Part shown: piece after piece, positions 23,488 to 53,665 of the stretch
How the letters are laid out: the number at the start of each line of letters is the position of its first letter
How positions within the stretch are numbered: position 1 is the stretch's first letter
NCBI GenBank assembly: GCA_029961685.1
Contig: JARWKL010000006.1
Location: 15,522,276 to 15,586,275, forward strand
Reading direction: 5' to 3'
From: Aristolochia californica
Lineage: Eukaryota > Streptophyta > Magnoliopsida > Piperales > Aristolochiaceae
DNA: 64,000 nt
Notes under the pieces: generated by a model
The model's input: only the letters and a program-made list of their open reading frames with translations
Databases searched by the model: none
What the model was told of the DNA's origin: nothing
Position numbers and translations under genes: made by a program

Positions 23488-23494
23488 GGAGGAG

Positions 23495-31533: not shown

Positions 31534-31534
31534 A

Positions 31535-31546
31535 TGGTATCAGAGC
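31535..31546 (+). other. Viral primer-binding site at the left junction
   Basis: TGGTATCAGAGC, the point where caulimovirid minus-strand synthesis begins and where their circular maps are numbered from. A 27-bp imperfect direct repeat (31542-31568 and 31579-31605) follows it. Confidence 0.85.
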
Positions 31547-31821
31547 CAAGAATTAGCCTTGGTCCTTTATGTGTATTTAGAGCCAAGGATTAGCTTTGGT
31601 TCTTTCTGTTTAAGTTTACATTCTCCCAAAATAGTTATGACCCAAAACCGATCACATCCCAAACAACATTTGTAATCCACAAATGTACCAAAAATTTAGA
31701 GTTCTAATATGGAACAAATCAAGTCTAACCCTGTAGTAAGACTTATCAACTGTTCTTGACTACGAGCATATATCATGCTAAGAAGGTATGCCAATCAAAT
31801 CGAATTCCAGAAGGTCTGGAT

Positions 31822-32010
31822 TTGACAATTAAAAGATCGACTCTTACGAGTTCAAGAAAAACTCAAAGAGTTAGAAGAAAATCCTTTAGTTGTAGACTAC
31901 AACAATGAAGGAAGAAGAATAATCCGAGATGGACGATTCTTAGGACTCGGTCCAGAAAGACTAAAACTAATCCAAGACCTAAAACATCAAATCAGGATAG
32001 AACAACTCAA
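31822..32010 (+). pseudogene. Viral coiled-coil ORF fragment upstream of viroplasmin domain
   Basis: An open stretch rich in K, E and L (for example RLLRVQEKLKELEEN), ending in a stop at about 32030, looks like an alpha-helical coiled coil. I do not recognise the family. It lies between the primer-binding site and the viroplasmin-like ORF. Confidence 0.45.
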
Positions 32011-32021
32011 ACTTCAAGAAT

Positions 32022-32330
32022 ATGCTATCTAAGCAATTTCTAGAAGATTTGGTTCTCATTCTCCGAAAAGAAATCAAAAGAATGAACCAAGCAGAAATCG
32101 TATATCAACACGTAGAAATCGCTTCAATTGGAGAAGCCTCTACAAGTACATACAAAATACCAGAACAAAAACAAAAATACTGGTATGTTGTCTTCATTGG
32201 GAGACAAACAGGAATATATGACAACTGGGAAGAAGCTCAAGAACAAGTCATAAAATTCCCCGAAAATTCTCATAGAAAATTCCAAACATGGAAAGATGCT
32301 GAACAAGCTTGGACAACATCCCAAAAATAA
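32022..32330 (+). pseudogene. Viroplasmin-like (RNase H1 hybrid-binding fold) domain of the pararetrovirus
   Basis: The 102-codon ORF contains YWYVVFIGRQTGIYDNWEEA and, later, KFQTWKDAEQAW. This pattern (W/YYVV..GR..GIY..W.E....V..F...K.F....A..A) is the caulimovirus viroplasmin/transactivator fold shared with the RNase HI N-terminal domain. The unusual point is its place upstream of the coat protein; in the TAV-bearing genera I know it is downstream of pol. The frame is open but both flanking frames are broken. Confidence 0.7.
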
Positions 32331-32529
32331 ATGATCTACAAGAAGAAACTTTTAGATCGTCTACAAAGAAAGAGAGATGGCCTTGCCTGTACTCTCTTAC
32401 TAAGAAACATGCTTCAGCATGAAGATGACACAATCCATTCAATAGAAATGTACTATGTCCATTGGGAAAGATATACTGATCGCATCTAAAAACTATGATG
32501 CAAGATCAAAAGAATTAAACAAAAGCTAA

Positions 32530-34135
32530 ACCTCTTAGCTTTGTGAAAATGGATGAGTTTTTCTATTTAATTGATATGGAAACTCCATTACCTCTAGGCC
32601 TTCTGACATTACCGGATGGCTTAAAAAACTAGTTTACCTTTGCACCTAGGAAAAAAAATTCAAAACCTTCAGCTTTTAGGATCGTTTCAAAAGCATCATC
32701 CTCTACAGATGATGAAATTTATGCAGAATATAATACTTTCGGATGCCAACCGATTTATTATGTTCAAAAGGAAAAACCATCCTCTAGTAAACAACAAGAG
32801 CAACATGACAGTGACCCAGAGGCATGGGAATCTGACGAAGTTGCAATAGAAAATACCAAGAAAAAAGACTACTATGCTAAAGACAAAAAGGCAGATGATC
32901 TTGGTAAAAGATTCGAAATGCTTTGAGGTAGTAACCAACAAGGAGTAGAAACTTCAAGGGTACGGGATACCCACATGGAAGACAGCTTTCGAGACAATTT
33001 CCGCGATCGAACAATAGATAACTCTCGAGAACGAGAAAGTTTCTCCCACTCCAAAATATCTCTGGGAGGACAAAGGTATTCGAAAAAATATACAAATGTC
33101 GATCCATCGCATGCTACTAAGGGACATCAATCCATAAATAGCATAGACCCTTTTGGATTTTATCTCAACTTGGACTGCCCCAAGGATGGAGAAAAAGTCC
33201 TTAAAGAATGGGAAAGAAGCATGAGTAATGCTACAAATATGCATGAATCTTGGGATAAAGATTCTGCATTCGATTTCTTTACCCATGCTTTACAGGGTAA
33301 TGTAGCTCATTGGTGGGACAACCTTCCCGAAGACCAAAAACGAACTACTTCAACATCTATAACCTCTATACTAAAATGATTAGTAGCTAAGATATCAAAA
33401 GAATTTCTAGGAATACATCCAACCCTAGAAGCTCATAATGAGAGTACTAAACAAGGAAAACGTTTAGAAATTCTTCAAAAATTAAACAAGTTACAAATTT
33501 GTAACATTTGTTTTTATGAGAAGTACTATTGCGAATTTGCAAGCTACTTCTATAAACTACAAAAAGATGATAAAAAACCTTACCTGGCCATCTTTTATTC
33601 AAAATTGCTAGAACCTTTTGCAACTGTAGTTGAAAAAAACTACATTATCAAATATTGGCAAAATAACCCAGAATGTGGTACTTTAACCATGGATAATTTC
33701 CTTAACTTTGATACTTTAGGACGAAGATACAAGTTTCTACAAGACATGTTGGCAAATCTCTGTGAAGCCCAAAAACTAAAAAAAAAAGTAGTAAGGCACA
33801 TCAATAAACATTATGTTGTTCTAACCAGAACAAAAATATAGGAGCATATGGTTGTAAGACCAACTCTCATATGCAAAGAAAATATCCTAAGAATTTTCTT
33901 AAGAAAAAATTTAGGATACAACAAAGTTCAAAAACTAAGTGTACTCCTCAAAAGAGATACTTTAGAAAAAGAACAAACTCTGGCCCCTCCACATCCAGTC
34001 AAGGGTCAAATGCATACTTCCCAAAGGGAAAACTCCCAAGCTAATGCAAGTGCTGAATATGCCAGAAAGAAGGACATTTCGCTCGCGATTGTCCTAATGA
34101 TAAGAAAAAATGGTAGTACAATACCTACATGATAC
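32530..34135 (+). pseudogene. Viral coat-protein region with zinc knuckle
   Basis: Three frames contribute (32975-33379, 33605-33841, 33848-34132). The first contains a conserved-looking tract ending ALQGNVAHWWDNLPEDQ. The last leads to a CCHC knuckle at about 34046-34110 whose visible core is CQKEGHFARDC; a stop falls between its first two cysteines. A W-W core followed by a basic segment and a CCHC knuckle is the coat-protein layout of plant pararetroviruses. At least five frame breaks. A movement-protein domain was not recognised. Confidence 0.7.
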
Positions 34136-34277
34136 TGGCCAAAGAAAAAGGATAGGAAATCATCCATCATGATGAAATCCAGTCAGACGATGAAGTATAT
34201 GAACTTCATCTTGACACTGAGTCTTCCAATTTAGAAAACTCAAAAAATATGTCGAACTCTTCAGGCACCTTTTCTGA

Positions 34278-34660
34278 ATGAGTATCTGCATAAATGCAGA
34301 GCATGTAGCTTCTGGAAATTCATATATCACGGTCATGCTTAAGCTACCCGGATATATCAAATTCTATATACACACTCTAGTAGATACAGGAAGTTCATAT
34401 TGCCTAGCTATAGAAAATTTACTTTCAACAACTTTATGGAAAACACTTGAAGTACCACTTCAAGTAACAGTTGGCTGAGGAGCAACTATTTCTCTTCCTG
34501 CCAAAGCCAGAAACATTCGTCTTGACATTGTAGGTGAAACATCTCTTATCCCAAAACTCATTAGTTTAGGACCACAAATAAACACAGGACCGGATTTAGT
34601 CCTCGAAAATGAATGGCTCATGTTCCACACACCTATAGAACAAACAACAGCCTACTAAAA
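34278..34660 (+). pseudogene. Viral aspartic protease
   Basis: The motif LVDTGSSYCLA at about 34376 is the catalytic D-T-G of a retroviral-type protease, preceded by a beta-rich stretch. A stop at 34476 and further stops near 34658 break the frame. It lies between coat protein and reverse transcriptase as expected. Confidence 0.75.
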
Positions 34661-34915
34661 ACTTCGTTGTCGTATCTGACACGAAATAGATAATTCTGCA
34701 GTATTTGTATACGTAGTAAAACCCCTGAAGCCTTCGCCCTTTCTGGCAATGGAGACGTTCTCCATCAGGTCTTCAAAAAATGTAGCAAGCGTGGTGATGA
34801 AGTTCCTCCCTGGAATCTCTCCTCCTCGCAGAGTCCTGCGAATCAGAAGTTCAACAGCTTCTGGATTCCACTTGTTCTGAGAAACCACTAGAATGGTGGA
34901 ATAAACAAATACCAT
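34661..34915. other. Protease-to-RT linker of the pararetrovirus
   Basis: Viral DNA without an open plus-strand frame of useful length. The 86-codon minus ORF is a shadow. Confidence 0.4.
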
Positions 34916-34965
34916 ATGCCAACCTTGAACTTCTTGATCCTGAAAAAGAAATTCAAGAAAAACCT

Positions 34966-35484
34966 ATGGTTTACACTCCTTCTGATATTGAAGAGTTTTC
35001 AACACAAATCAATGACTTGCTAACACTAGGATTAATCCGTGCAAGTTATTCTTCACATATATCTCCTGCTTTCCTTGTTCGGAATCATGCAGAGATCAAA
35101 CGTGGAAAAGCTAGAAAGGTCATTAACTATAAAAAGGTTAATGAAGCCACAAAAATGGATGACTACTATCTTCCTAACAAAGAAAGATTAATAGCCGCTA
35201 TAAGAGGAAAACAATGGTTTTTTAAATTTGATTACAAATCAGGGTTTTGGCAGATTCGTCTAACCGAAAGACCTATTCCCCTTACTACATTCAGTTGTCC
35301 TTCAGGACATTATGAGTGGCTTGTTATGCCCTTCGGGTTGAAACAAGCACCCAATATATTTCAAAGAAGAATGGACGATATCCTCAAACCATTCTTTAAA
35401 TTTTGCTTAGTTGATGTTGATGACATCATAGTTTTCTCTGAAACTAAAAATCAACATAAAGAGCAATTACTTAAGGTATTAAAT
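34966..35484 (+). pseudogene. Viral reverse transcriptase, left part
   Basis: An open frame of about 170 codons carries caulimovirid RT landmarks: ARKVINYKKVNE, FKFDYKSGFWQI and MPFGLKQAPNIFQ. The polymerase box is VDVDD where Y-[VI]-D-D is expected, so the conserved tyrosine is changed. The frame is cut at 35484 by Gypsy-C and resumes at 48947. The part seen here is nearly undamaged apart from that box. Confidence 0.85.
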
Positions 35485-35861
35485 TGTTATGGACTCCATA
35501 GCATCTAGAGTATCTACTCGACGTAGAGGGTAGACTATGTAATTTTCAGTTTTATTTCATTAGTAGGTTGTTATGTAATTTCTTTCAAAACTGATGGCCT
35601 CGTGTTTGGCCAAGGTTGGTGTCGTGCCCTAATCCCTTTATAGGGGTGTCAAGTTATGGAATAAAGTAAGCATTGATCAAATTAGTGTAGGAGATCAGAT
35701 TCTCTCTCTGACGAGGTCCAAGGCTGAGTCTCCTTTGAAGGCTCGTTCTATCCCAACCATTGGGTGTTCGAAGCATCCCAAATCCTTCTCATCCTCATTA
35801 TTCAATCTGGAAGCCAGAGGAGATCATCGGGTGACTTGATCCATGGCAAGGGAACCTAACA
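35485..35861 (+). repeat. Gypsy-C 5' LTR
   Basis: This 377-bp LTR is aligned base for base in length with 48565-48941. An ATG at 35843, 19 bp before the LTR end, opens the gag frame. Confidence 0.92.
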
Positions 35862-37102
35862 TCGTGGTATCAAACAGGACCACCATTGGCGATTCCTCTT
35901 CCCTTGCTGATTTGCGTAATCTGATTGAGGAAAATCGTATTGAGGCTCAAAATCGAAATGACACACTCCAAACTGAAGTATTTGTCATGAAAGACACTCT
36001 TCAGCAAATGATGATTTGAATGGAGGAAGGGTTTTCTCGGATTGCGGCATAGCCAGGAAGTTCAACATGTCCTTCCAACCCTCCAACGCCCCATCCCCCT
36101 CCACCTCCAACTCATTTGCGTCAACAACCTCCTCCAGCCATGGGAGTCCACGGACGAGGCCACACAACAGTGCCCAGGTATACTAAATTAGACTTTCCCA
36201 CGTATGATGGGTCCTTGGACGCTTTGATTTGGTTACACCGGTGTGACCAATTCTTTTGGAATCAAAGAACCCAACCCGAGGATAGGGTTCCCTTAGCTGC
36301 CTTCCACATGCTCGACGAAGCGCTGTTGTGGTATCATCAATTTAATTCTGAGCATCATGTGCATGATTGGGAATTTTTTAAAGACTACTACATGTTACGG
36401 TTTGATCCACCAGCACGCAGAAATCCTCTAGGATATTTGGTAAATCTCAAACAAATAGGAACTATTGAACATTATCAGAAATTATTTCAAGAACGGCTTG
36501 CACGAGCCAATTAGTTTGTGCGTCTGAGCTAATATGTCCACTTGTTTACAGCCGGCCTGGTTGAGGCACTTCGTCTCGAGGTGGAATTACATGACCCCCC
36601 CCATCTTTAGCACATTCTATGAATTTGGCACGGACGCTTGACACCAAACAACGAATATTGAAAGACTCATTGCGTAGACCCCCTTGGACAGCTCGGGTGA
36701 CACCAGGTGCCCCACAAAACCACAACACACCACAGTGCCAAGGAACACCTCCGTCCAATCCATTATAGACTACCACATCCACACCCCCACCACAATATAT
36801 TAAACGCCTGTCCAAATCAGACGGGCTCAAGGGCTGTGTTTTAACTGTGATGAAAAATTCCGGACGGAGCATGTTTGCAAAAGGCTGTTTTGGTTAGAGG
36901 TGGAGGATCCAAAAGATATTACCCCACCAGTGGATGAGGAAGAGACCGAAGTGGAGGAACCTGCAATTTCCATCCACGCAATGACTGGGTTGCATAGCGC
37001 CAACACTATGCAGGTCCACCCTGCCATCCAAAATCTCATGTTACTTGCACTGGTCGACTCGGGCAGCACCCATAATTTCCTCAGCCAACCTGCAGCACAA
37101 TA
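35843..37102 (+). pseudogene. Gypsy-C gag and zinc-knuckle relic
   Basis: Gag opens inside the LTR (MAREPNIVVSNRTTIGDS), reads through the primer-binding site (35865-35878, TGGTATCAAACAGG) and stops at about 36019 and 36049. The main gag domain is 36116-36514, with TKLDFPTYDG, CDQFFW, MLDEALLWYHQF and FQERLARAN, then a stop. Downstream, a CCHC knuckle has decayed (around 36836-36885). A stretch with AMTGLHSANTMQV leads into protease. Confidence 0.85.
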
Positions 37103-37330
37103 GTTGGGATTGTCACTTCAGCACAATTTTGGCATTTCTGTCTTTGTAGTTAATGGGGACAAGGATACCAGTGTGGGGTTCTATTTAGCTTTTCAATTTG
37201 TTATTGAGGGACACACCTTTGTGGCAGATTTCTTGGTCATTCCACTTGTTGGGTTTGATTTGGTTTTGGGGATTAAATGGCTGCAACAGTTGGGTCCGAT
37301 TTTATGGGATTTCAGTCCCTTTCTATGATT
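36963..37330 (+). pseudogene. Gypsy-C aspartic protease
   Basis: LALVDSGSTHNFLS at about 37048 contains an intact D-S-G catalytic triplet. A stop at 37102 interrupts it. The second half (FVADFLVIPLVGFDLVLGIK and then WL) matches the flap and C-terminal part, ending at a stop at 37328. Confidence 0.85.
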
Positions 37331-37441
37331 TTTACGCAAGCTCATCACCAGCTCACACTCCATGGCGCCCATACATAGTTACCATGCACTATCAAGAATA
37401 TCCAAGTTCTAGACACAGATCGCTATCAGTTAAACTCCCTC

Positions 37442-38185
37442 TTGACAAAATTCGCAGACTTATTTCAGAAACCAGCTGCACTTCCGCCCATACGAGCTTG
37501 TGATCATCGAATTTGGCTAAAGTTGGGCACCGAACATGTAGTAGTGCATCCATACCATTACCCGCATTTGCCGAAAGATGAGATAGAACGACAATGTCAG
37601 CAGATGTTAGCGAATGGACTTATTCAGCCTAGCCACTCCCCATTTTCTTCACCGATGTTGTTGGCAAAAAAACATGATCACTCTTGGTGATTTTGTGTCA
37701 ACTACAGAGAGCTCAACACTCGTACAGTAAAGGATAAATTTCCAATCCCGGTAGTGGACGAACTATTGGACGAGTTACATGGAGCTCAATTATTTACTAA
37801 GCTGGACTTGAAATCCAGCTATCATCAGATTCATGTACACAATGACGATGTGGGGAAAACTGCATTCCGGATGCATCATGGTCATTTGGAGTTCTTGGTT
37901 ATGCCATTTGGGCTTTCCAACGTCCCTTCCACCTTTCAGTCACTTATGAACGAGGTATTTCATCCATTCTTACGTAAATCTGTTCTGGTATTCTTTGATG
38001 ATATATTGATTTATAGCAAGAATTGGGAAAACCATCTACAACGATTGAGACAGGTATTTACTCTCCTGCGTGTCCATCATCTCTTCCTCAACCAATCCAA
38101 ATGCACTATGGGTACTTCAGAGGTCGCTTATCTGGGTCATGTTATCTCAGCCTCCAGAGTTAAAGTGGACACTAGAAAAATATAG
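37442..38185 (+). pseudogene. Gypsy-C reverse transcriptase
   Basis: RT words: YHYPHLPKDEIERQC, SPFSSPMLLAKKHD then a stop at 37688, [10 protein letters not shown] and [13 protein letters not shown]. The catalytic [10 protein letters not shown] is intact at about 37995. The frame ends with a stop at 38183. Confidence 0.87.
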
Positions 38186-38800
38186 GCAGTTATTGATTGG
38201 CCTACTCCACAGTCAGTCACGGTTTTAAGGGGATTTTTAGGCCTCGCTGGGTATTATAGGAAGTTCATTTGCGAGTATGGCAAGCTTGCCGCACCACTTC
38301 ACAACTTACTCAAGTGTAATGCCTTCCATTGGCCTGAAATTGCAGAGTCATCCTTTCAGCACTTGAAACAAGCATTAGCATTTACCCTAGTTCTCCAATT
38401 TCCAGAGTTTGAGGAACCATTTGTTATTGAATGTGATGCATCCGGAGGAGGCATTGGCACGGTCTTGTAGCAACAGGGACACCCCATAGCTTATTTCAGC
38501 CGCCACCTTGCCCTGCACCACCAGAAGTTAGCTGCATATGAAAGGGAACTTATCGACTTAGCAAAAGACATTCAACATTGGAGGCCCTAGCTGTGGGGTC
38601 CACCTTTTGTGATCCGGACCGACCACTACAGTCTGAAATACTTGTTGATGCAATGCCTCACTACTTCAGCGCAACAACATTGGCTGAGAAAATTAATGGG
38701 GTTTAATTTTAAGGTGGAGTACAAACCAGACCATCTTAACCAGGGGGCTGATGCCTTGTCTCATAGAGACATTGTGGACTCACAGCTGGACACCATTAGT
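38186..38800 (+). pseudogene. Gypsy-C connection and RNase H
   Basis: The frame carries FLGLAGYYRKFI, ECDASGGGIGTVL (catalytic D in CDAS), a stop at 38468, AAYERELIDLAKDIQHW, a stop at 38588, then IRTDHYSLKYLL and GADALSHRD. It is the retrotransposon RNase H in normal order with two nonsense codons. Confidence 0.85.
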
Positions 38801-38899
38801 CAACCGCGGTCACTTTTGCTCGATTCCATCCGAGATGACATTCAACAACATCCTGAGCTTCTCGCATTATATGACAAAATCGAGCAACATACTATGGAC

Positions 38900-40190
38900 A
38901 ACAACTGGGAAGTTCAGGACTGCCTTATATTGTATAAGAGTCATATCTATCTCCATCACACTTTCATACTCCTCAACAACATTATCTCTTCCTTTCAGGA
39001 CAACACTCATGAAGGCCAGCAGAAGACGTATTTCTATCTTAGTCGTGACTTCTCTTGGAGGGGCATGAAAAGGATGATAGTTGAGTATGTCGCTACATGA
39101 CAGGTTTGCCGATGGAACAAAGCAGAATCTTTAAACCCAATTGGCCTGTTGCAACCCCTTCAGCTACCTTCACAGGTATGGGCAGATATTTCCATGGACT
39201 TTATCGATGGCCTTCCAAATTCTTCCGGCAAATCTATTATTCTGGTAGTGGTGGATTTGTTCTCTAAATATGGGCACTTCATGCCCCTGGCACATCCGTA
39301 TACGGCGACTCATGTCGCTCAAATTTTCATGGACCAGATTGTCCGTCTTCATGGCTTACCAGAGTCCATCACCAGTGACCGTGATGCCGTCTTCACCAGT
39401 AACTTCTGGACCAAACTCTTCAAATTGCACAACACAAAGTTTGCATTCTCCTTAGCATACCACCCGCAGACCGATGGGCAAACAGAGCTGGTCAACCACA
39501 CTCTGGGGATGTATTTGCGGTGTTTCGTTGGTGACTCTCCACGCACTTGGGTCCGATGGTTGGCCTAGGCCGAGTGCTGTTATAACATCTCTCACCACAC
39601 AACGCTGGGCACCACACCGTTCAAGGTGGTCTATGGGCGTGAGCCCCCTCGTCTCATATCTTATGAACCTGGGTCATCTCGAGTAGCGTCACTTGACCAG
39701 GGTTTAGAGGAACGGGATACCATGCTCACCTAGGTAAAAGCTCACTTGCAGCGCTCTCGGGACACTATGAAGCACACATATGACAAGGCCCATCGTCCTC
39801 TTTTATTTTCTCTTGGAGATTATGTATGGCTTAAACTCAAACCCTACCGCTAGCTTTCCCTTGTGGTATCTTAAAGACACAAACTCTTTCCAAAATTTTA
39901 TGGGCCTTCCAGGTGTTGCAATGTATTGGCAATGTGGCTTATCGCCTGCAACTTCCACCAGACACCAAGATCCATGACGTCTTCCACGTCTCTCTCTTGA
40001 AGTCCTTCAGGGGCGACTCTCCGCTGCTGAACACCCCTTTGCCACTGCTACAAGATGGACGACCTCTGCCTACTCCAACGCAGGTACTAAATGCTCGCAG
40101 TGTCTAGGGATCATGGGAGGTGTTAGTTCAGTGGGTGGATGAAGACCTAGTGGAAGCTTCCTGGGAGCCACTCCAGTCCTTCCAGGCCCT
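38900..40190 (+). pseudogene. Gypsy-C integrase and C-terminal chromodomain-like tail
   Basis: H2C2 region: DNTHEGQQKTYFYLSRDFSW followed by a stop at 39098 where the second Cys pair begins. Core: DISMDFIDGLP, VDLFSKYGHFMPLAHPYTA, SDRDAVFTS and YHPQTDGQTEL, so D, D and E are all visible. Stops follow at 39566, 39732 and 39853. Tail: VLVQWVDED and WEPLQSFQALY, cut by LARD-2 at 40191; the final FELEDKL is on the far side (48508-48540). Confidence 0.87.
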
Positions 40191-40195
40191 ATACT

Positions 40196-40634
40196 TGTTA
40201 AATTTATAGAAAAGTGAAATACTTCATTGACATCAATAACTTATTGTAATTAGAGTACATAAACTTCTATTTATAATAGAGGAAGGTACTAGAGTCCAAT
40301 TACAATAAAACTAACCTTGTCCCAATTACACCCAAACTCTAACACTTAAAGATAAGTCCTAACATAATTAAATAACTCAATATAGATAAAAGACAAACGT
40401 AACTCAAACTAAAACTCTTCTTTGACGTGACCATAAGATAAGATACTTTTGTGAGACCTTCTTGAGCTTCCAAATGATGTGATAAGGACCAGCTCATGGT
40501 AATCATTGTGGGTCCTACTTCTTATGGGCTGGGACCCATCTTGTGGGCCTTCCTTGGTCATGTGGCCCATCTTATAATAATCTTAGATATGTGGGCCTTC
40601 CTTGGTCGTGTGGGCTTAAGCTTATCTTCCAACA
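40196..40634 (-). repeat. LARD-2 3' LTR
   Basis: This LTR runs TGTTAAATTTATAG...CTTCCAACA on plus. A minus-strand TATA box (TATTTATA on plus, 40268-40275) lies in the U3-like part. It matches 42380-42445 and 48157-48502, where about 25 bp near the outer edge is deleted. Confidence 0.85.
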
Positions 40635-42379: not shown

Positions 42380-42445
42380 TGTTGAATTTATGGAAAAGTG
42401 AAATGCTTCATTGACATCAATAAGTTGATGTAATTAGAGTACATG
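42380..42445 (-). repeat. LARD-2 5' LTR, left piece
   Basis: The 66 bp after the primer-binding site match the start of 40196-40634. Cut by Gypsy-A; ACATG (42441-42445) is its target-site duplication. Confidence 0.85.
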
Positions 42446-42894
42446 TGTTATGGACTCCATAGCATCACGAGTTATCCATAGGCATAGGAATTAAATTGTG
42501 TCTATTTAATTTTCATGTAATTTCAATTCAGTTTGGTTTACTTTATTTGGTTTGGTTTATTTTGGGTTGGTTCAGTGTAATGTGGCATGAACCACTGACC
42601 TAATGGGTCATCTTTGTATTTTCGTCCTCAACCCTATTTAGGGGGGCGTGAAGGAAAAGAGAGGCAAGTATTGAGAAAATTATATTTTACAGGTCTTATT
42701 CTCCCTCAGAGGTCAAGGTCAGATTCTCCCTTTGAGGTCCAAGGTTGAGCTTCCTCCAAAGCTCCTTCATTCTAAATTGAGTTCCACCATTACTCGTTCA
42801 AGAAACAAGGTTTCTGTTCCAACGTTAAGATCATCCATGGAGGGAAGAGAGGAAAGAAGGGTGACTCGATCCATGACAAGGGAAGAACCTAACA
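42446..42894 (+). repeat. Gypsy-A 5' LTR
   Basis: This 449-bp LTR runs TGTTATGGACTCC...GAACCTAACA. ATGs at 42838 and 42873 in the same frame lie inside the LTR and open gag. Confidence 0.92.
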
Positions 42895-43985
42895 TTTTGG
42901 TATCAGATAGGTCCACCCTTGGGGATTCTTCTTCCCCTAACGATTTGAGACAGTTAGTGGAAGATAATAGGCAAAGGACAGATAACCAGGCTCATTCCCT
43001 GGAAGAGGTGCGTCAATCAACCTCTGATTTGTGTGAGGCAATAAAATCAATGGATGCTGCCATCCAAGCTCTCCTCCGGCGACAAGAGGACCATGATACA
43101 CGAGCCCAACCTCTAGCTGCCTACTCTCCACCGGCCGAACACCATCCATTCCACCTACCACCTCCCCCACAACCACCAATGCGTCAACACCATTCCCATA
43201 TGGGGCCTGCCGTTCAAGGACCAAACATTGTGCCCAGGTATTTAAAACTTGACTTTCCTATGTATGATGGGTCTAAGGACCCTTTGATTTGGTTATCCAA
43301 GTGTGATCAGTTCTTTTACCATAAAAAAACGCCTGCGGATGAGAAAGTGTATTTGGCCGCCTACCACATGCTCGATGAAGCGCTTCTATGGTACCACCAA
43401 TTCTGAAATGACCAAGTGGTTTAGGATTGGGCAAGTTTTAGACAGTCTTGCATGATGAGATTTGGTCCTCCTGCTAGTAGCAATCCATTGGGCGAATTAA
43501 TCAATTACAAACAAACTGGAACACTAGAGGTGTACCAAAAGACCTTCCAAGAAAGGTTAGCCTGAGCAAACCAGTTTGTTAGACACACATAGTATGTTCA
43601 TATTTTTACTGCTGGTTTGACAGAAGCTCTGCGTTTAGAAGTTGAATTACATGCTCCTACAGATTTAGACCACGCTATGAATTTAGCCAGAGCAATTGAG
43701 CACAAGCAGTGTGTTCTAAAGGAGTCACTGGTCAGAAAACCAGCTTGGCCAGGAAGGCACAATGCCTCTGCACCAAACCATTCCTATGGACCTCCAAAAT
43801 TTAGAGACAGTGCAGCCCCACACCCAGACATCTCTAATTCAGGTCCACCTGCTCCTTACTTCAAAAAACTTACTAGACAAGAAATGGAGCAGAGAAAGGC
43901 CAAGGGCCTCTGTTTTAACTATGATGAACAATATGTTTTTGGTCACCACTGCAAACGATTATTCAGTATATGTCTGTGGGAGGAT
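42838..43985 (+). pseudogene. Gypsy-A gag
   Basis: An open frame runs from the LTR (MEGREERRVTRSMTREEPNI) through the primer-binding site, read as LVSDR. It includes a coiled-coil-like Q/E-rich segment and a proline/histidine-rich linker. The gag core follows (KLDFPMYDGS, CDQFFYHKK, HMLDEALLWYHQF), stopping at 43404-43406. It continues after stops at 43422 and 43563 with TEALRLEVELHAP. The CCHC knuckle is damaged: GLCFNYDEQYVFGHHCKR has Y where the second Cys belongs. Confidence 0.88.
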
Positions 43986-44049
43986 GGAGAAGAAATACCA
44001 CTAGAGGAAGAAATTTTGGAAACTGACCAAGAAGGTCTAGAGATTTCCC

Positions 44050-44605
44050 TTCATGCTATGACTGGTCTACGCAGTGCAAGCACAATGCAGGTTAAAGCCC
44101 AATTACATCATTTAAAGTTACTGGCTTTAGTTGACTCGGGTAGTACACATAATTTCATCAGTCAGCAGGCAGTAGAACAACTTTGGGTTAGTAGTACAGC
44201 AACAAAATGGTCTTTCTGTATCAGTAGCCAATGGGGCTAAAATTACTAATGTAGGCATATCACCAGCCACACACTTTGATATTGAGGGATATAAATTTGT
44301 TGCAGATTTTCTGGTGATTCCACTATCAGGATTCGATTTGGTGCTAGGAATTAAATGGCTACAATTATTGGGACCAATACTATGGGATTTCCAAGCTCTG
44401 ACCATGTCTTTTATAGAGGACCAACATCAGATTATATTACATGGCACACAAGCACCACTCACCTGCGCACTACAGGTTGCCCAGGTCCAGTCCACAAATA
44501 CATGTAAGTTATCTCACTTACTTACAGAATTTGAGGATATCTTTCAAGACCCTACTGCCTTACCGCCACTTAGGCACTGTGATCATCGTATCCGTTTGAA
44601 AACGG
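44050..44605 (+). pseudogene. Gypsy-A protease and spacer
   Basis: LALVDSGSTHNFIS at about 44126 has an intact D-S-G. A frameshift near 44190 moves the rest (FLVIPLSGFDLVLGIKWLQL) into the frame at 44314-44646. The frame then reads DHRIRLKTGTE and is cut by the solo LTR. Confidence 0.87.
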
Positions 44606-44613
44606 GGACCGAG

Positions 44614-44987
44614 TGTTATGGACTCCATAGCATCAAGAGTGGCTAACCGGAGAAGAGAAGAGATGGAATAACTTGTATTTCAGTACCTTAGGGGTTTAAT
44701 TATAATTTGAAGTTCCATAAGGGTCTAATTGTAATTATAGAACCTTTGATGTTTTCCTTGACCTATTTAGGGCGTCAAGTGATGGAATGAAAACAAGCAT
44801 TGATCATTAGTCTAAATGAGATTAGGTTCTCTCTCTAAAGAGGCCTAAGGTTGGAGCTCCTTCAAAGGCTCACGTCCCTTCATCATTGGGCGTTCCAAGA
44901 ACCCCAAATCCTTCCCTTCTTCGTCATTCAATCTGGAAGCTAGAGGAGATCGCCGGGTGACTCGATCCATGGCTAGAGAGCCTAACA
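44614..44987 (+). mobile_element. Solo LTR inside Gypsy-A pol, TSD CCGAG
   Basis: TGTTATGGACTCCATAGC...GAGCCTAACA, 374 bp, is flanked by CCGAG (44609-44613 and 44988-44992). It is closer to the Gypsy-C LTR than to Gypsy-A's own. Its 3' end carries ATGGCTAGAGAGCCTAACA, the gag start of the family, which joins in frame to the downstream pol. Confidence 0.93.
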
Positions 44988-46693
44988 CCGAGCCGGTAGT
45001 GGTATGTCCGTATCGTTACCCTCACTTGCAGAAGGATGAGATTGAAAGGCAGTGCCAGCAGATGTTAGCACAGGGTATTATTCAGCCCAACAGGTCTCCT
45101 TTTTCTTCACCGGTATTACTAGTCCGCAAGCATGATAAGTCATGGAGGTTCTGTGTGGATTACCGACAACTCAATGCCCATACAATTAAATATAAATTTC
45201 CTATTCCAGTGTTGGACGAGTTGTTAGATGAGCTACATGGAGCTACTATATTTACTAAACTCGATTTGAAATTTGGCTATCATCAAATCCGAGTTCATCC
45301 ATCAGATGTGGAGAAAACAGTGTTCCGCACGCATCACGGCCATTTTGAATTCCTCGTAATGTCATTTGGTCTGTCAAATGCGCCTGCCACCTTCCAGGCC
45401 CTCATGAATGAGGTATTTCCCCCTCTCTTGCGAAAATATGTATTGGTCTTTTTCGACGATATTTTGGTCTATAGCAGCAGTTGGGAAGAACATCTTCAGC
45501 ACCTTCACCAGGTATTTTCTCTTATATGTTCACATCATTTGGTTTTAAATCGGTCAAAATGTTCTATGGGCACATCAGAAGTGGCATATTTGGGCCATGT
45601 TATTTCAACATCAGGGGTGAAGGTAGACCAGAGTAAGATACAAGCTGTCACAGATTGGCCTATTCCTACATCTATTACAGCCTTAAGAGGATTTTTGGGC
45701 CTTGCTGGATATTATAGAAAATTTATTCGTAGCTATGGCCAGCTTGCAGCTCCGCTCAACAATCTCCTCAAGAAAAATGCTTTTACTTGGTCCGAGACAA
45801 CAACTCATTCCTTTCAGCAATTGAAAGATGCCTTATCATCAGCCCCAGTTTTGCAGCTCCCCGACTTTGAGGAGTCCTTTGTAGTGGAATGTGATGCTTC
45901 AGGGGGCGGTATTGGCGCAGTGTTGCACCAACAGGGCCACCCGATTGCTTATTTTAGCCATCAACTGGGCCAACACCACCACAAGTTGGCAGCTTATGAG
46001 AGGGAATTGATTGGATTGGCGAAAGCTATACAACATTGGCGCCCTTATCTTTGGGGACGTTCTTTTTTGATTCGTACTGATCATTCCAGCCTCAAGTATC
46101 TTCTTGAGCACCATCTCACTACTTCACCACAACAGCATTGGTTAAGTAAGCTTATGGGGTTTGACTTTTCTGTCGAGTATAAACCAGGAAGTTTGATTGT
46201 AGGGGCTGATGCCTTATCTCGCCGGGACGTTCCAGAGCCGCAATTAAACGCCATCAGTCAGCCCAGAGCTCTCTTGTTGGATTCTATACAGGAAGAGGCA
46301 CAACAGTACCCAGATATTATCTGCTTATGCCAGGATATCCAGCAGGGCACATCGGCACCACATTGGACGGTTCAGGACAATCTCGTCCTCTACAAAAACA
46401 GAATTTTTCTTCACCACACATCCCCTCTGATTAACAACATTTTGGCCTCCTTCCATGATAGTACACATGAGGGCCGACAGAAAACATATTTTCAAATCAG
46501 TAGGGAATTTTATTGGAGGGGCATGAAGCGCAGTATAGCTGATTATGTGGCAGCTTGTCAGACTTGTCAACGGAATAAAACTGAAACATTAAATCCAGCG
46601 GTGTTGCTCCAACCACTTCAGCTTCCGTCACAGGTCTGGTCTGATATTTATATGGACTTCCCTCTTCATCAGGTAAATCTGTTATCCTTGTAG
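44969..46693 (+). CDS. 574-codon ORF: solo-LTR start codon fused to gypsy RT-RNase H-integrase
   Basis: The ATG at 44969 is in the solo LTR (MAREPNT) and continues as EPVVVCPYRYPHLQKDEIE without a break. Reverse transcriptase follows with SPFSSPVLLVRKHDKSWRF, LDLKFGYHQI and an intact catalytic VFFDDILVYS. RNase H has ECDASGGGIGAVLHQ, TDHSSLKYLL and GADALSRRD. The integrase H2C2 motif is HDSTHEGRQ... then CQTCQ, and its core begins DIYMDF. A frameshift near 46660 ends the frame at 46693. All RT and RNase H landmark residues I can check are present. It is a defective polyprotein fragment without protease or full integrase. Confidence 0.88.
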   Translation: MAREPNTEPVVVCPYRYPHLQKDEIERQCQQMLAQGIIQPNRSPFSSPVLLVRKHDKSWRFCVDYRQLNAHTIKYKFPIPVLDELLDELHGATIFTKLDLKFGYHQIRVHPSDVEKTVFRTHHGHFEFLVMSFGLSNAPATFQALMNEVFPPLLRKYVLVFFDDILVYSSSWEEHLQHLHQVFSLICSHHLVLNRSKCSMGTSEVAYLGHVISTSGVKVDQSKIQAVTDWPIPTSITALRGFLGLAGYYRKFIRSYGQLAAPLNNLLKKNAFTWSETTTHSFQQLKDALSSAPVLQLPDFEESFVVECDASGGGIGAVLHQQGHPIAYFSHQLGQHHHKLAAYERELIGLAKAIQHWRPYLWGRSFLIRTDHSSLKYLLEHHLTTSPQQHWLSKLMGFDFSVEYKPGSLIVGADALSRRDVPEPQLNAISQPRALLLDSIQEEAQQYPDIICLCQDIQQGTSAPHWTVQDNLVLYKNRIFLHHTSPLINNILASFHDSTHEGRQKTYFQISREFYWRGMKRSIADYVAACQTCQRNKTETLNPAVLLQPLQLPSQVWSDIYMDFPLHQVNLLSL

Positions 46694-47220
46694 TGGTGGA
46701 TCGTTTCTCTAAATATGGGCATTTCATTCCTCTGGCACATCCTTACACTGCAACGCAAGTCGCTCAACTTTTTATGGATAACATTGTACGATTACATGGG
46801 ATGCCTAATTCAATTACCAGTGATAGGGATGCAATCTTTACAAGTACCTTCTGGAAAGAACTCTTCAAGTTACAAGGCACAACGTTAGCCTTTTCTTCAG
46901 CCTACCATCCACAAACTGATGGTCAGACAGAAGTCGTCAACAGAACCATTGAAATGTATCTCCATTGTTTCGTGGGGGACTCACCTAAGAGGTGGGTTAA
47001 GTGGCTCGCCTGGGCTGAGTTCTGTTACAATACCTCCTACCACAGCGCACTCGGCACAACCCCATTCAAGGTGGTATATGGTAGAGAACCTCCCCATTTT
47101 TTAGCCTATGAACCAGGGGCCTCTAAAGTCACAACTTTGGACCAAGCATTGGCTGAAAGAGACACATTCATCACTGAGGTGTGCACTCATCTACAGAAGG
47201 CACAATATTCTATGAAATAA
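46694..47220 (+). pseudogene. Gypsy-A integrase core and C-terminal part
   Basis: The 175-codon frame continues the integrase after the frameshift: VDRFSKYGHFIPLAHPYTAT, SDRDAIFTSTFW (second D), YHPQTDGQTEVVNRT (catalytic E) and CYNTSYHSALGTTPFKVVYG. It stops at 47218-47220. Confidence 0.88.
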
Positions 47221-47677
47221 TATTATGACAAGAAGCACCAGGAAGTCTTCTTTTTTCCTGGAGATTATGTTTGGTTGTGTCTCCAACACTACAGGCAGCT
47301 GTCGTTGACAGCCTCCAAACGTCACAAGCTCTCTCCAAAATATTATGGTCCCTTTCAGGTGATGGACCGCATTGGGACAGTGGCCTACAGATTGCACCTT
47401 CCGCTAGAGGCCAGAATTCACAATGTCTTTCATGTCTCACAATTAAAGGCCTTCCACGGTGATTCGCCCTTGCTGCACACCCCGCTGCCACCACTCCATG
47501 AGGGACGTGTACTTTCTACCCCGGCACAAGTATTACAAACTCGCCATATTCAGGGTGATTGGGAGATCTTAGTGCAATGGGCAGATGCTGACCCCAGTGA
47601 CACGACATGGGAGCCATTAGCGGCGTTTCGCACCCTCTACCCATACTTTGAGCTTGAGGACAAGCTCTTTCTCCAAA
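47221..47677 (+). pseudogene. Gypsy-A integrase tail with chromodomain-like end
   Basis: The frame continues KYYGPFQVMDRIG, AYRLHLPLEARIHNVFHVSQ, ILVQWADADPSDTTWEP and YFELEDKLFLQR, then enters the poly-G tract and 3' LTR. The VFHVSQLK... WE block is the GPY/F and chromodomain-type C terminus of chromoviral integrases. Confidence 0.85.
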
Positions 47678-47699
47678 GGGGGGGGGGGGGGGGGGGGGG
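47678..47699 (+). other. Polypurine tract of Gypsy-A: 22 consecutive G
   Basis: CCAAA is followed by 22 G, then TGA and the LTR (47703). It is in the position of the plus-strand primer tract but abnormally long and pure. Confidence 0.88.
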
Positions 47700-47702
47700 T
47701 GA

Positions 47703-48151
47703 TGTTATGGACTCCATAGCATCACGAGTTATCCATAGGCATAGGAATTAAATTATGTCAATTTACTTTTCATGTAATTTCAATTCGATTTGGTTTACTT
47801 TATTTGGTTTGGTTTATTTTGGGTTGGTTCAGTGTAATGTGGCGTGAACCACTTGACCTAATGGGTCATCTTTGTAATTTCGTCCTCAACCCTATTTAGG
47901 GGGACTTGAAAGAAAAGAGAGGCAAGTATTGAGAAAATTATATTTTACAGGTCTGATTCTCCCTCAGAGGTCAAGGTAGGATTCTCCCTTTGAGGTCCAA
48001 GGTCGAGCTTCCTCCAAAGCTCCTTCATTCTAAATTGAGTTCCACCATTACTCGTTCAAGAAACAAGGTTTCTCTTCCAACGTCAAGATCATCCATGGAG
48101 GGAAGAGAGGAAAGAGGGTGACTCGATCCATGTCAAGGGAAGAACCTAACA
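47703..48151 (+). repeat. Gypsy-A 3' LTR
   Basis: This 449-bp LTR is nearly identical to 42446-42894. It is followed by ACATG and the rest of the LARD-2 LTR. Confidence 0.92.
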
Positions 48152-48156
48152 ACATG

Positions 48157-48502
48157 AACCTCTATTTATAATAGAGGAAGGTAGTAGAGTCCAATTACAA
48201 TAAAACTACCCTTGTTCCAATTACACCCAAACTCTAACACTTAAAGATAAGTCCTAACATAATTAAATAACTCAATATAGATAAAAGACAAACATAACTC
48301 AAACTAAAACTCTTCTTTGATGTGACCATAAGATAAGATACTTTTGTGAGACCTTATTGAGCTTCCAACTGATGTGATAAGGACCAGCTCATGGTAATCA
48401 TTGTGGGTCCTACTTTTTATGGGCTTGGACTCATCTTGTGGGCCTTCCTTGGTCATGTGGCCCATCTTATAATAATATGAGGCTTGAGGTTATCTTCCAA
48501 CA
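48157..48502 (-). repeat. LARD-2 5' LTR, right piece
   Basis: It continues from 42445 with CTCTATTTATAATAGAGG and matches 40262-40634 to the end CTTCCAACA, with about 25 bp deleted near 48475. Confidence 0.87.
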
Positions 48503-48507
48503 ATACC

Positions 48508-48564
48508 TCACTTTTGAGCTTGAGGACAAACTCTTTCTCCAGGGGGGGGGGGGGGGGGGGGTGA
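48508..48564 (+). other. Gypsy-C pol end and poly-G polypurine tract (20 G)
   Basis: TTTTGAGCTTGAGGACAAAC encodes the FELEDKL end of pol. It is followed by CTCCA, 20 consecutive G (48542-48561), TGA and the 3' LTR at 48565. Confidence 0.87.
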
Positions 48565-48941
48565 TGTTATGGACTTCATAGCATCTAGAGTATCTCCTCG
48601 ACGCAAAGGGAAGACTATCTAATTTGCAGTTTTATTTCATTAGCAGGTTATAATGTAATTTCTTTCAAAACTGATGACCTCGTGTTTGGCCAAGGTTGGC
48701 ATCGTGCCCTAATCCATTTATAGGGGCGTCAGGTTATGGAATAATGTAAGCATTGATCAAATTAGTGTAGGACATCGGATTCTCTCTCTGACGAGGTCCA
48801 AGGCTGAGTCTCCTTTGAAGGCTTGTTCTACCTAAACCATTGGGCGTTCGAAGCATCCCAAATCCTTCTCATCCTCGTTACTCAATCTGGAAGCCAGAGG
48901 AGATCGTCGGGTGACTCGATCCATTGCAAGGGAACCTAACA
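48565..48941 (+). repeat. Gypsy-C 3' LTR
   Basis: 377 bp, the same length as 35485-35861, followed by TAAAT and the resumption of the viral RT gene. Confidence 0.92.
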
Positions 48942-48946
48942 TAAAT

Positions 48947-49690
48947 GCCTTAAAAATGATGGGATAACACTTAGCAAAAAGAAATCAGAATTGTTTAAAA
49001 CTAAGATAGATGTTTTAGGACTAAACATCTCAAAAGGAGAAATTATACTCCAAAATTATATTCTGCAAAAATTAGCAGATTTTCCAAATGAAATAGAAGA
49101 TGTTAAACAACTTCAATGTTTCTTAGGATGCCTAACATATACTAAACAATTCATAAAGAATTTAGTAGAAATTAGGAAACCTTTTCAACAGAAGTTAAAG
49201 AAAGATGTCAAAAGGGAATGGACTCCCTCTAACAGTTCAAAAGTTATTAGGATCAAACAAATGATGAAACACCTCCCAGCGTTAACTCTACCAGATCTAG
49301 ATGCAAAACTAATTTTAGAAACTGACGCCTTGGATCATACTTGGGCAGCAGTACTAAAATGTAAATCAATGATTCTGAGTGAATATGTAAATATACCTTA
49401 AGAACAATTTCATATGCTAAAATAAACTATCATTCTTATGAAAAAGAAATTTTAGCAGTAAAAAATGGGATAAAGAAATCTTGCCCCCAAAGAATTTCTG
49501 GTGAGAACTGACTGTAAAAATTTTGTCGATTTTATGACAAGAAATCTAGAAGACTCACTTTGTCGTGGTAGATTACTCCGATGGCAGTAGTGGTTCTTTC
49601 AATTCTCTTGTACTGTAGAACACATTAAAGGAGACAAAAATTATTTACTTGATACTCTTACTCAAGAATTTTCTTGTGTTACAGACGGGT
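48947..49690 (+). pseudogene. Viral reverse transcriptase end and RNase H
   Basis: The RT frame resumes after Gypsy-C with TLSKKKSELFKTKIDVLGLN and the thumb/connection words LQCFLGCLTYTKQFI. RNase H follows (ILETDALDHTWAAVLK, first catalytic D-type region) with a stop at 49399-49401. It continues in other frames with FLVRTDCKNFVDFM and VEHIKGDKNYLLDTL, ending near 49690. This is the normal end of the pararetroviral polymerase. Confidence 0.85.
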
Positions 49691-49694
49691 AAAA

Positions 49695-49945
49695 TGAACC
49701 CTCTCAGCAATACACTGACGGACCTAGCAGCAACAATCGCCACTCTTACGGTATTGCTCTCTACCCAACAGTTTCTATTTGACAATCTTTTAGTTCTTTC
49801 TGAACGAGGAGACTTATCCAAGAACTGTGCCCATTATGGGTTAAGTGGAGACCTCTTACAACTCAAGGTTAAGGAATTAAACGAAGAGTTAAAAGAACTC
49901 AACAAAAGGCATGATATGCCAAGCTCCTCTGGGACTTCTACCTAA
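49695..49945 (+). pseudogene. Viral ORF downstream of polymerase, coiled-coil rich
   Basis: An open frame starting MNPLSNTLTDLAATI ends with LKVKELNEELKELNKRHD, a leucine-heptad coiled-coil pattern. The product is unrecognised. It starts immediately after the RNase H end, so it could be a separate downstream viral ORF. Confidence 0.5.
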
Positions 49946-50023
49946 TCTCCTTTGAAAAAAAGGAAGCCTCAACATCAGCTAATAAGCAGACGGATGACTT
50001 TAGTGTTTCGATAAACACAGGTC

Positions 50024-50216
50024 GACTCGCGATTTCTACCGGTCATGTCAGGCATGAGAAGGAAATCAAAACCCAGTCTTCTATGAAGATCGGGAAATCA
50101 AGGATTTCTATTTGCCAGTCTAGAGCTGGAAAGGAAATCTTAACGATTTCATCAAAATCGGAATCAGGGACTTCTACCTGCCAGTCTCGAGCTGGAAAGG
50201 AAGTCACAACGGACCA
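50024..50216 (+). repeat. Imperfect tandem repeat in the viral genome (about 66 bp)
   Basis: The unit CCAGTCTAGAGCTGGAAAGG (about 50113) recurs as CCAGTCTCGAGCTGGAAAGG (about 50180), each within GGNA/TTTCTA context. A weaker third unit lies near 50025-50065. In one frame this repeats CQSRAGKE. Confidence 0.65.
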
Positions 50217-50222
50217 TCTCTG

Positions 50223-50911
50223 ATGGAAACAGACTTGTCTAGAAATGAATTCTCATTCAAGACAAAATTGGTTACCTCGTTTGAGTTTACATGGTTGCAA
50301 AGCCTTAATAAGCCAAACAAAGCAAGTTTTATTGAGTTTGAATTTTTGAAGAAAATTCAACCTTTGAAACTTTCGAACATCATGTCTGAGGATCCCTCGC
50401 TACGCCTTCTAAAGGTGGACAACATTCATTGAAAAATAGAAACCGATCATACTGTTCAATTCCAAAGGTGGAATGACCAAATCGGACAAGGGATGAACAC
50501 TCCATTCTTCACAACCGAATCCAGCAGCAGTTGGAATCAAGTGAAACTGAGTCAAGAAATAGACTTGAAATATGCATCCATACTTTATTCTTATGGATTC
50601 ATAAAGCAGATAATGCTTCACTCCACCAATTTATTGGTTTTGGAGAAGATGCCAAAAAAGATTATGGAGGCTTGCTAAAGCTTTATCTCCATAAAAAAAG
50701 TAAAGGAACTCAGATTAAATTCGTTTCCTATATTGCTGAAATTGTTACTGACATCAAGATGTTTCCAAGCATTTCTGTCGTGACTCTTGAAGCCATCAAA
50801 ACAGGTGAAGCTACACAGGAATATGATCCCAGACATATTCCAAAGACAAAACCATGCCCCGAAGCTGTTTGGCCAACCAGGCGTATACAAGGGCTCAAGC
50901 TTCTGACATAG
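50223..50911 (+). pseudogene. Viral downstream ORF region, unassigned
   Basis: Frames 50223-50432 and 50531-50911 are open and protein-like (for example FVSYIAEIVTDIKMFPSISV) with breaks between them. The place after pol is where several caulimovirid genera carry an extra ORF, but I see no diagnostic motif for movement protein or transactivator. Confidence 0.45.
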
Positions 50912-52327
50912 CTCTTACAACAACTACTTCAGAAGAAGAAAAACTTTATCTGTAAGACATCCGTCCCATTAACGATTATTGCGAAAATCTATAAAGAGAC
51001 TCCTGCACCTATTTAGAAAAGTCTCGAAGAAATACTAAAGAAAATCCTCAAAGGAAATATTCCCTTAAGAAAAAATACAAAAGAAGGTTTCTGCAAGATG
51101 GCCCAGAAGTCTTTTCCAAAAGAGCACACCTGCCGACTGTGCATAGAAAGGTAACTATCAGAATGAAGAACAGTCAGCAGCCATGTCAGTCGACACATCA
51201 GCCAACAAGTCAGCAGCCACCAAGGTAGAAGACAAAATCCAAGTCAGCAAAGGCGACAAAGAAAAAAGATCCCTGTACGTCAGCAAGATGATGTCAAGAG
51301 AATAAAAGTCTTTAGTACCCCTGCTTTCGGCTCCGAAAGGTAATACTGTAAGGGCAAAAATGAAAAGACAAAAAGACAAACGATACCCTTTATCTTTAAT
51401 TACAAACCCTTCGATCAAGGGTAAAGAGGGAAGAAAAAGAGAGCCCCTCAGCTACAAAATTGAAGCTCCACCAGAGGTTGAGGCATTCAAAAATCAATCC
51501 ACTCTTTTCTAGAAGAAGAATCAAATATCTGAAGAAGGCGATTTCCAGTGAGCATCTTTTGGTGAAGTCCTTAAAGAATGGTATGTGCTTAACAGTCGTA
51601 ATGGCTGAGTAGTAAAGTGGGAGCCGACCGGTAGCACGATCGGTAACTTCAGGAGCTATGTAGATATGTAATTGTGTTTTTCTTTTTCCTTTTTAAGGAT
51701 ATGATGTTGTGTTTTTTTTTTATATTTTCCACATGTTTGTAATATTTCAATTCGTACAGTGTTTTTTTTATTGTTCCTGTTGCTCATCTATATATGAATC
51801 ACCACAGTAGTTGTTTTTCCTATTCTAAAGTTACTGTTGATGTTTATTGTTCATGTTCACTGCTCACTCGTAAATAGTAATAGTATCGAATAGTGCTAAA
51901 TACAATCGAAGCTAGAGACTTAGAATTATTCGGCTACTCTTCGAGGTAGAAAATGAAATGGAGCTATGCTCTACCCTACTGAAGCAGCCATGGAGCCGCA
52001 TCAGTTGACATAGATGGCTTGGGGAACTTTGAAAACCATGAGGAGCCCATGTGGTGGTATGCCGGTAGGAATAAGGTCAAACTCCGAAGAGTTCTGAGTA
52101 GCAGCAGAAGTCATGTTGGGCCTATTAGATAGCTATTAAATATCGACACAAACGAGTAAATAGCAGTAATATGTGGTAGTGACTGACAATAATATCAATA
52201 GGAAATGTTGGTAAGGGAAGAATTGTAATGTAGGAATAGTAAGTAATGTGTTGAGAGTGTCTTTGTGTTAAAAATGGTATCAAAGCAATGGTGTTTTGGT
52301 ATCATAGTAGTCTAGTGTAGTTTAAAA
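50912..52327 (+). other. Putative viral intergenic region and pregenomic leader
   Basis: Long frames are lacking here. Short frames up to about 51418 are on the minus strand only. From about 51660 the DNA is T-rich with many short ORFs, typical of a pararetroviral leader. It ends with TGGTATCAAAGC at 52275, matching the primer-binding site at the left end, and a second partial copy TGGTATCATAG at 52297. I could not fix a TATA box or transcript start. Confidence 0.45.
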
Positions 52328-52333
52328 ATGGTA

Positions 52334-53093: not shown

Positions 53094-53665
53094 TGTTACA
53101 ATGTGGGACCCACCATGGTTGCATGAGCTGGTGGGACCCACCATGAGGACGTGAGAAGCCAAGATGAGTCAACACACAAGTTGTCATGAGTTGGATGACG
53201 AGCTGGAATAAGTTGGAAGAATTGAAGATTTAGTGGGACCCACAAAGATACCATGAGCTGGAATATCTAATGGGACCCACAAGAATATAGCATGAGCTGG
53301 CATCCTTAGCCTAGCCAGCTCATGAACAAGGAATTGGGAAAGTTAGTATTTGGCGAAGTTAGAATTTGGGTAAGTTAGAATTTGAGTAAGTTCTAAATTG
53401 AGTTGAATTATAGTGGGAAAGTGTACATAAATTATATCACTCCTCCACTATAAATAGAGGAGCTTGTATTCAAGAAAAATCAATCAAAGCAAGGAGTTCT
53501 TTCCTCTTTTCCCATTCATGTGAAAGAAGCTCTTCTTTTCTCTTCTCTTCTCTTTAGTTTTTTCTTCTTTTCCTCTCTCTACCTGAAAGCCCTCTTTCCC
53601 TCTTCTCTTTTTCTCTTCTCTCTCCCCTTACTCAAGTTATTATTCATTGGGTCCTAAACTCAACA
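53094..53665 (+). mobile_element. Copia-2 3' LTR
   Basis: TGTTACAATGTGGGACCCAC...CTAAACTCAACA, 572 bp, is related to the Copia-1 LTRs but clearly diverged. A TATA box is at 53449-53456. The right flank begins CACAT; the element's left end is not in view, so no duplication could be tested. Confidence 0.88.

What the first reader, a model, noticed from the sequence alone, without database searches (positions are those of the whole stretch)
31534..52333. Apparently full-length endogenous pararetrovirus whose two ends both lie at the tRNA primer-binding site
Viral homology starts exactly at TGGTATCAGAGCC (31535) and ends just after TGGTATCAAAGC (52275). Excluding the nested gypsy, the viral DNA is about 7.3 kb, one genome length. 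Most endogenous caulimovirids I know of are rearranged or partial. Here a single linear copy seems to have been opened at the minus-strand discontinuity. Copia-2 sequence flanks both sides and ATGGTA is present at both junctions (31534-31539 and 52328-52333). The primer-binding site also contains TGGTA. This suggests microhomology-guided joining of a free viral end.
Basis: partly seen in the sequence, partly recalled or inferred. Interest (0 to 1): 0.88.

Follow-up and report, generated by a model that had tools for sequence, protein, structure and literature searches.

The report
Fossil plant virus integrated whole
A complete but decayed copy of an old plant DNA virus sits inside a mobile element, cut open where the virus starts copying its own DNA, which hints at how such viruses get captured in chromosomes.

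Summary
Confirmed with one important correction. In a 660-Mb plant genome (probably Aristolochia californica, from contig lengths) a decayed caulimovirid copy of 7,337 bp (31535-35484 plus 48947-52333), split by a gypsy element, lies in a Copia pol gene. Its left end is nucleotide 1 of the tRNA primer-binding site (PBS). The right end is 52333, five bases into the real PBS. Copies that run through show the two ends are neighbours in the viral circle. In 28 of 29 other Copia copies the flanks are one base apart: no target-site duplication, about 1 bp lost, ATGG shared on the left; the second ATGGTA is viral. The nearest relative by leader (C438) is a second genome-length case: 7,205 bp between ends at PBS nt 2 and about nt 12, in an unrelated repeat, interior not read. 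Most other copies do not end at the PBS. Best reading: linear viral DNA ended at the minus-strand discontinuity was captured by end joining. Junctions near discontinuities are already in print for rice and tobacco.

The parts
29674..31537 (+). Copia pol, left flank of the insertion
   Evidence: 76.9-82% identity to the window's other Copia copy at 21116-22733 in its main pieces; other genome copies
31534..31537 (+). ATGG shared by Copia and virus (left microhomology)
   Evidence: Copia copies read ATGATGG; viral copy L013 reads AAAAATGGTATC
31535..31548 (+). tRNA-Met primer-binding site (TGGTATCAGAGCCA), left end of the virus
   Evidence: 14 of the 16 bases of the tRNA-Met PBS printed in PMC13308828 (passage); same sequence in other viral copies
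31542..31612 (+). 37-bp tandem duplication just after the PBS
   Evidence: two units also in L014 and L016
32181..32306 (+). Cauli_VI (RNase H1 N-terminal) domain
   Evidence: Pfam PF01693, E 1.8e-14
33470..33793 (+). coat-protein-like region
   Evidence: Pfam PF22909, E 5.6e-5 but 23.9 bits against a cut-off of 27
34320..34472 (+). caulimovirid A3 protease fragment
   Evidence: Pfam PF02160, E 4.1e-6, above cut-off
34801..35484 (+). reverse transcriptase, 5' part
   Evidence: Pfam RVT_1 E 3.8e-25; PDB 8r0s E 8.5e-71
35480..35484 (+). TAAAT, target-site duplication of the gypsy element
35485..48941 (+). nested gypsy element (itself complex), LTRs 35485-35861 and 48565-48941
   Evidence: uninterrupted viral site in L080
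48942..48946 (+). TAAAT, second copy of the target-site duplication
48947..49511 (+). rest of RT and RNase H
   Evidence: Pfam PF17919 E 1.4e-7 and 7.4e-4
49619..50911 (+). downstream ORF remnants, no Pfam family
   Evidence: part of it also in gene model P0045 and in L033, L080
51815..52209 (+). leader that folds as one long hairpin
   Evidence: 55 pairs spanning 250 nt or more, reached by 3 of 200 shuffles; energy z only -1.74
52268..52321 (+).
52329..52333 (+). TGGTA, first five bases of the real PBS: right end of the virus
   Evidence: Copia resumes at 52334
52334..53263 (+). Copia pol and 3' part, right flank
   Evidence: 78% identity to 22751-23673; other copies

Best explanation
Shown: one genome-length caulimovirid copy lies in a Copia element with host junctions at PBS nt 1 (left) and nt 5 (right), about 1 bp of target lost, no target-site duplication, and four shared bases on the left. 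A second copy (C438) has the same layout in another repeat. Inferred: tRNA-primed reverse transcription makes DNA whose minus strand starts just upstream of the PBS and ends at the PBS. A linear double-stranded molecule with these ends, either a product that failed to circularise or a gapped circle broken at this gap, entered a chromosome break and was sealed by host end joining. The overlap of about five bases would be copying over the gap. A gypsy element later split the copy.
For: Native order leader, PBS-like unit(s), PBS, left-end sequence in L013, L016, L023 and L084, L085 makes the two window ends neighbours in the viral circle. Empty site in 28 of 29 other Copia copies with exactly one base between the flanks. 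Length 7,337 bp and collinear sister L080 over 32549-51073. Second case C438: right end at PBS nt 2, left end at about nt 12, 7,205 bp apart, flanks that join into a host repeat seen uninterrupted in eight other loci, CCA shared at its left joint. Integration during replication with junctions at discontinuities was proposed before (PMC526188, passages).
Against: Ends at the PBS are a minority: by eye 23 of 29 other left-end loci continue upstream into leader or PBS-region sequence, and 3 of 5 right ends read run straight through the PBS. The C438 ends do not overlap; about nine PBS bases are absent there. The interior of C438 was not read. Only 40 of 557 left-end and 40 of 881 right-end candidates were scored. 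Whether the precursor was a linear product or a broken gapped circle cannot be told.
Confidence: 0.8

Rival explanations
1. A closed or concatemeric viral circle broke at an arbitrary place, or at a fragile leader hairpin, and the break merely happened to lie at the PBS.
For: Most copies found do not end at the PBS; rearranged and tandem copies exist (L017, L018, L022).
Against: About 11 in 7,337 by chance for the window, and a second genome-length copy opened at the same place. The hairpin ends near 52209, over 100 nt from the PBS.
Confidence: 0.12
2. ATGGTA is a 6-bp target-site duplication made by an integrase, with the virus carried as a passenger of retrotransposon machinery.
For: The same six bases flank the insert.
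Against: Other Copia copies have one base (mostly G) between ATGATGG and ATGC, not a single ATGGTA; viral copies carry AATGGTA natively. No integrase family among 24 viral ORF pieces scanned. The C438 copy has no duplication.
Confidence: 0.03
3. A longer or tandem insertion was trimmed later by recombination between PBS regions, leaving one unit.
For: Viral copies in tandem or fused order exist (L017, L018, L022, L026, L027).
Against: Recombination between viral units would leave the outer host junctions where they were; both host junctions here are themselves at the PBS, in two unrelated sites.
Confidence: 0.05

Closest known systems
Endogenous RTBV-like sequences of rice and pararetroviral sequences of tobacco (Kunii et al. 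2004, PMC526188, passages seen; Jakowitsch et al. as cited there)
   Same: No integrase; host junctions concentrate in the intergenic region and at positions matching discontinuities; integration during replication proposed
   Different: Here a genome-length copy with both ends at the tRNA-primed site and a base-resolved empty site; target is Copia, not an AT repeat
Endogenous florendoviruses (Geering et al. 2014, PMC4241990, passages and section 7 seen)
   Same: High-copy endogenous caulimovirids, some near full length; empty sites with small gains or losses; NHEJ or microhomology joining proposed; one locus described with a copy meeting another at the tRNA-Met sequence
   Different: Genus of the present virus not determined; PBS-like units not mentioned in the passages I saw
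HBV double-stranded linear DNA integration (PMC8398950, passages seen)
   Same: Works alike: linear reverse-transcription product joined to breaks by NHEJ or MMEJ
   Different: Hepadnavirus, another family; protein priming there is recalled; analogy only

Membership tests
Caulimoviridae | Caulimovirid reverse transcriptase | tested here: met
   Best PDB match 8r0s E 8.5e-71, next 4ol8 1.3e-21, Ty3 7q5b 8.9e-21; relatives with Peptidase_A3 plus RVT_1
Caulimoviridae | A3 aspartic protease and Cauli_VI domain | tested here: met
   PF02160 and PF01693 above cut-offs
Caulimoviridae | Coat protein | tested here: inconclusive
   PF22909 23.9 bits, cut-off 27
Caulimoviridae | Movement protein | tested here: not met
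   No MP family in 24 ORF pieces of the window copy; the copy is decayed, and a weak MP match (E 0.021, below cut-off) lies in L079 upstream of viral locus L012
Caulimoviridae | tRNA-Met PBS at map position 1, behind a structured leader | tested here: met
   31535-31548; native order; hairpin 3 of 200 shuffles
Caulimoviridae | No LTRs and no integrase | tested here: met
   No repeat of the ends beyond the PBS bases; no integrase family in 24 pieces
Caulimoviridae | Genus-level placement | not tested
   No tree was built
LTR retrotransposon insertion | Target-site duplication | tested here: not met
   One base between the flanks in 28 of 29 other Copia copies
End-joining capture | Small target loss and/or microhomology, no duplication | tested here: met
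   1 bp lost and ATGG shared; C438 2-4 bp lost and CCA shared

The most novel reading that the evidence does not exclude
In this virus lineage PBS-like units (one in the window, up to four read in L087) stand in tandem in front of the real PBS. Extra priming or strand-transfer sites could derail circularisation of new viral DNA, yield many linear molecules ended at the PBS, and so help the lineage fill the host genome (557 left-end and 881 right-end first-look candidates).
Probability: 0.1. Interest if true: 0.75.

Novelty: new member of a known kind. Interest (0 to 1): 0.5.

Why it matters
A 2023 review calls the way caulimovirid DNA enters plant chromosomes speculative (PMC10377300 section 3.1). 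Two genome-length copies opened at the tRNA gap, each with an empty site resolved to a few bases, name a specific precursor and make it testable across one host genome with hundreds of candidate copies.

Tried and rejected
Considered 52112-52275 as an LTR of another element followed by its own PBS: rejected, no repeat in the window and the stretch is homologous to leaders of other viral copies. Considered 52268-52321 as templated filler made at the junction: rejected, other viral copies carry the unit. Two scans of viral contigs, with the RT piece and with an RT alignment, found no relative. A homologue search for 50477-50911 found none. Rfam (31300-53500) and tRNA scans were empty. The first genome pattern search gave five loci without similarity to the window's viral ends or near Copia flanks. 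The place about 7 kb upstream of the C111 relative (L089) showed no viral match. Age: gypsy LTR distance K 0.0815 would give about 3 million years at 1.3e-8 per site per year, a rate recalled and not calibrated for this host; a rough lower bound for the viral insertion.

Full report
Setting. The window is C478:15522276-15586275 of an assembly of 659,574,684 bases in 521 contigs. Contig lengths 48,413,878 (C221) and 51,226,272 (C111) equal the contig lengths listed for Aristolochia californica proteins P0091 and P0045, so the host is very probably that species.

Virus. Pieces of 31535-35484 and 48947-52333 carry a Cauli_VI domain, an A3 protease, reverse transcriptase and RNase H, and a coat-like region below its cut-off. 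The RT piece matches PDB 8r0s at E 8.5e-71, the next best 4ol8 at 1.3e-21 (that 8r0s is the cauliflower mosaic virus enzyme is recalled). This piece runs 8 residues into the gypsy LTR. Frames are broken. The nested gypsy is 35485-48941, flanked by TAAAT. Sister copy L080 is uninterrupted there and collinear from 32549 to 51073, so nothing large is missing over that span. Compared with L011, L012 and L020 (L019 at the second place only) the window lacks about 400 bp near 32329 and, against L011, L020 and L019, about 215 bp near 32552. In 20 of the 29 other left-end loci a single alignment crosses both places without these segments, so the window is a short form. L013 covers 50933-52333 and runs on past the PBS.

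Left end. Copia runs to 31537 and the PBS begins at 31535; the four bases ATGG fit both.

Right end. In L013, L016 and L023 and in L084 and L085 the leader is followed by one or more PBS-like units, then the true PBS, then left-end sequence. L086 has the PBS without such a unit. The window has one unit (52268-52321), then TTTAAAAATGGTA ending at 52333, then Copia. So the right end is five bases into the true PBS and the two ends overlap by TGGTA (ATGGTA if the shared A is counted).

Empty site. The left Copia flank gave 2,810 first-look candidates; 40 were scored and 30 loci cut, one of them the window. In 28 of the 29 others the two flanks are contiguous with one base between them, mostly G; L068 has a deletion across the site. 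Hence no duplication and about 1 bp lost. On the right, 0-1 base is shared.

Second case. The right-end search listed 74 matches, from 881 candidates with 40 scored. I read five right ends. The best match other than the window, C438 (90% over query 1-463), breaks two bases into the PBS (L083). Left-end sequence lies 7,205 bp away and begins at about PBS nt 12 (L088). The joined host flanks align across the site in eight other loci (L005, L020, L025, L028, L037, L055, L071, L073), with 2-4 bp lost depending on where shared bases are counted, and CCA shared on the left. The interior of this copy was not read. Of the other four right ends, L084, L085 and L086 run through the PBS, and L087 leaves the PBS after nt 7 for a stretch that by eye resembles window 51690 onwards.

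How common. By eye, of 29 other left-end loci 23 continue upstream into leader or PBS-region sequence; L020 keeps about 12 nt of it; L012 has an unidentified, virus-like stretch; L025 and L037 have viral RT fused to the PBS; L038 has what looks like an inverted leader piece; L015 is truncated inside. Eleven further places were read in part (L070-L078); in L070 two copies stand head to head, one beginning at PBS nt 3. Ends at the PBS are thus real and recurrent but a minority.

Mechanism. Junctions of rice copies were mapped to the intergenic region and to discontinuities, with integration during replication proposed, citing tobacco (PMC526188, passages). End joining at breaks is one of two main hypotheses in a review (PMC10377300, section 3.1; also PMC4241990, passages). 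Gaps left by reverse transcription at the Met-tRNA site are described in PMC5902531 (passages). HBV linear DNA is a working analogy (PMC8398950, passages). The linear precursor itself is inferred. No published genome-length, PBS-to-PBS plant case turned up in searches, but the library lacks most subscription journals and I saw mainly listings, so this is weak.

PBS-like units. The exact string TGGTATCAGAG lies 30-250 nt upstream of the match start in 7 of 29 other left-end loci, four times in L018; in L018, L019, L022 and perhaps L029 one of these may be the PBS itself. L087 shows four units, L085 three, L083 two, L084 one, L086 none. In one search many of the extra short matches (query 405-484) lie beside longer ones, as tandem units would. 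One search listed one paper, seen as a listing only; nothing in it was checked on this point. A role for these units is a guess.

Confidence. The end positions and the empty site are computed results. The link to the discontinuity rests on two copies and established replication biology.

Noticed in passing
52268-52321; L018, L023, L083-L085, L087: PBS-like units, 1-4 in tandem, stand in front of the real PBS in several viral copies.
   Followed up: partly
L025 and L037, about position 1501; window 35484: Two loci have viral RT fused directly to the PBS at the viral position where the gypsy element sits in the window. Both also carry an inverted downstream piece.
   Followed up: no
L011, L012, L019, L020; window 32329 and 32552: Long forms of the virus carry extra segments of about 400 and 215 bp that the window and 20 of 29 other loci lack.
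   Followed up: partly
L079:937-1191 (-): Weak movement-protein match (E 0.021, below cut-off) upstream of viral locus L012, none in the window copy. It could hint at a separate genome component, as proposed for some florendoviruses.
   Followed up: partly
L070:531-650: Two viral left ends head to head about 24 nt apart, one of them starting at PBS nt 3.
   Followed up: no
L007 (10 kb left of the window): Further viral fragments (66-79% identity) and Copia fragments lie next to the window.
   Followed up: no
G000:C478 near 7.66-7.68, 8.07-8.10, 9.59-9.65 and 10.31-10.57 Mb: Clusters of leader matches, often with several unit matches side by side; L087 from one cluster breaks at PBS nt 7.
   Followed up: partly
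31542-31575 and 31579-31612: 37-bp tandem duplication after the PBS, present in some copies (L014, L016) and single in L012, L013 and L020.
   Followed up: no
P0041, P0045, P0091: Annotated Aristolochia californica proteins that are fragments of these viruses.
   Followed up: no
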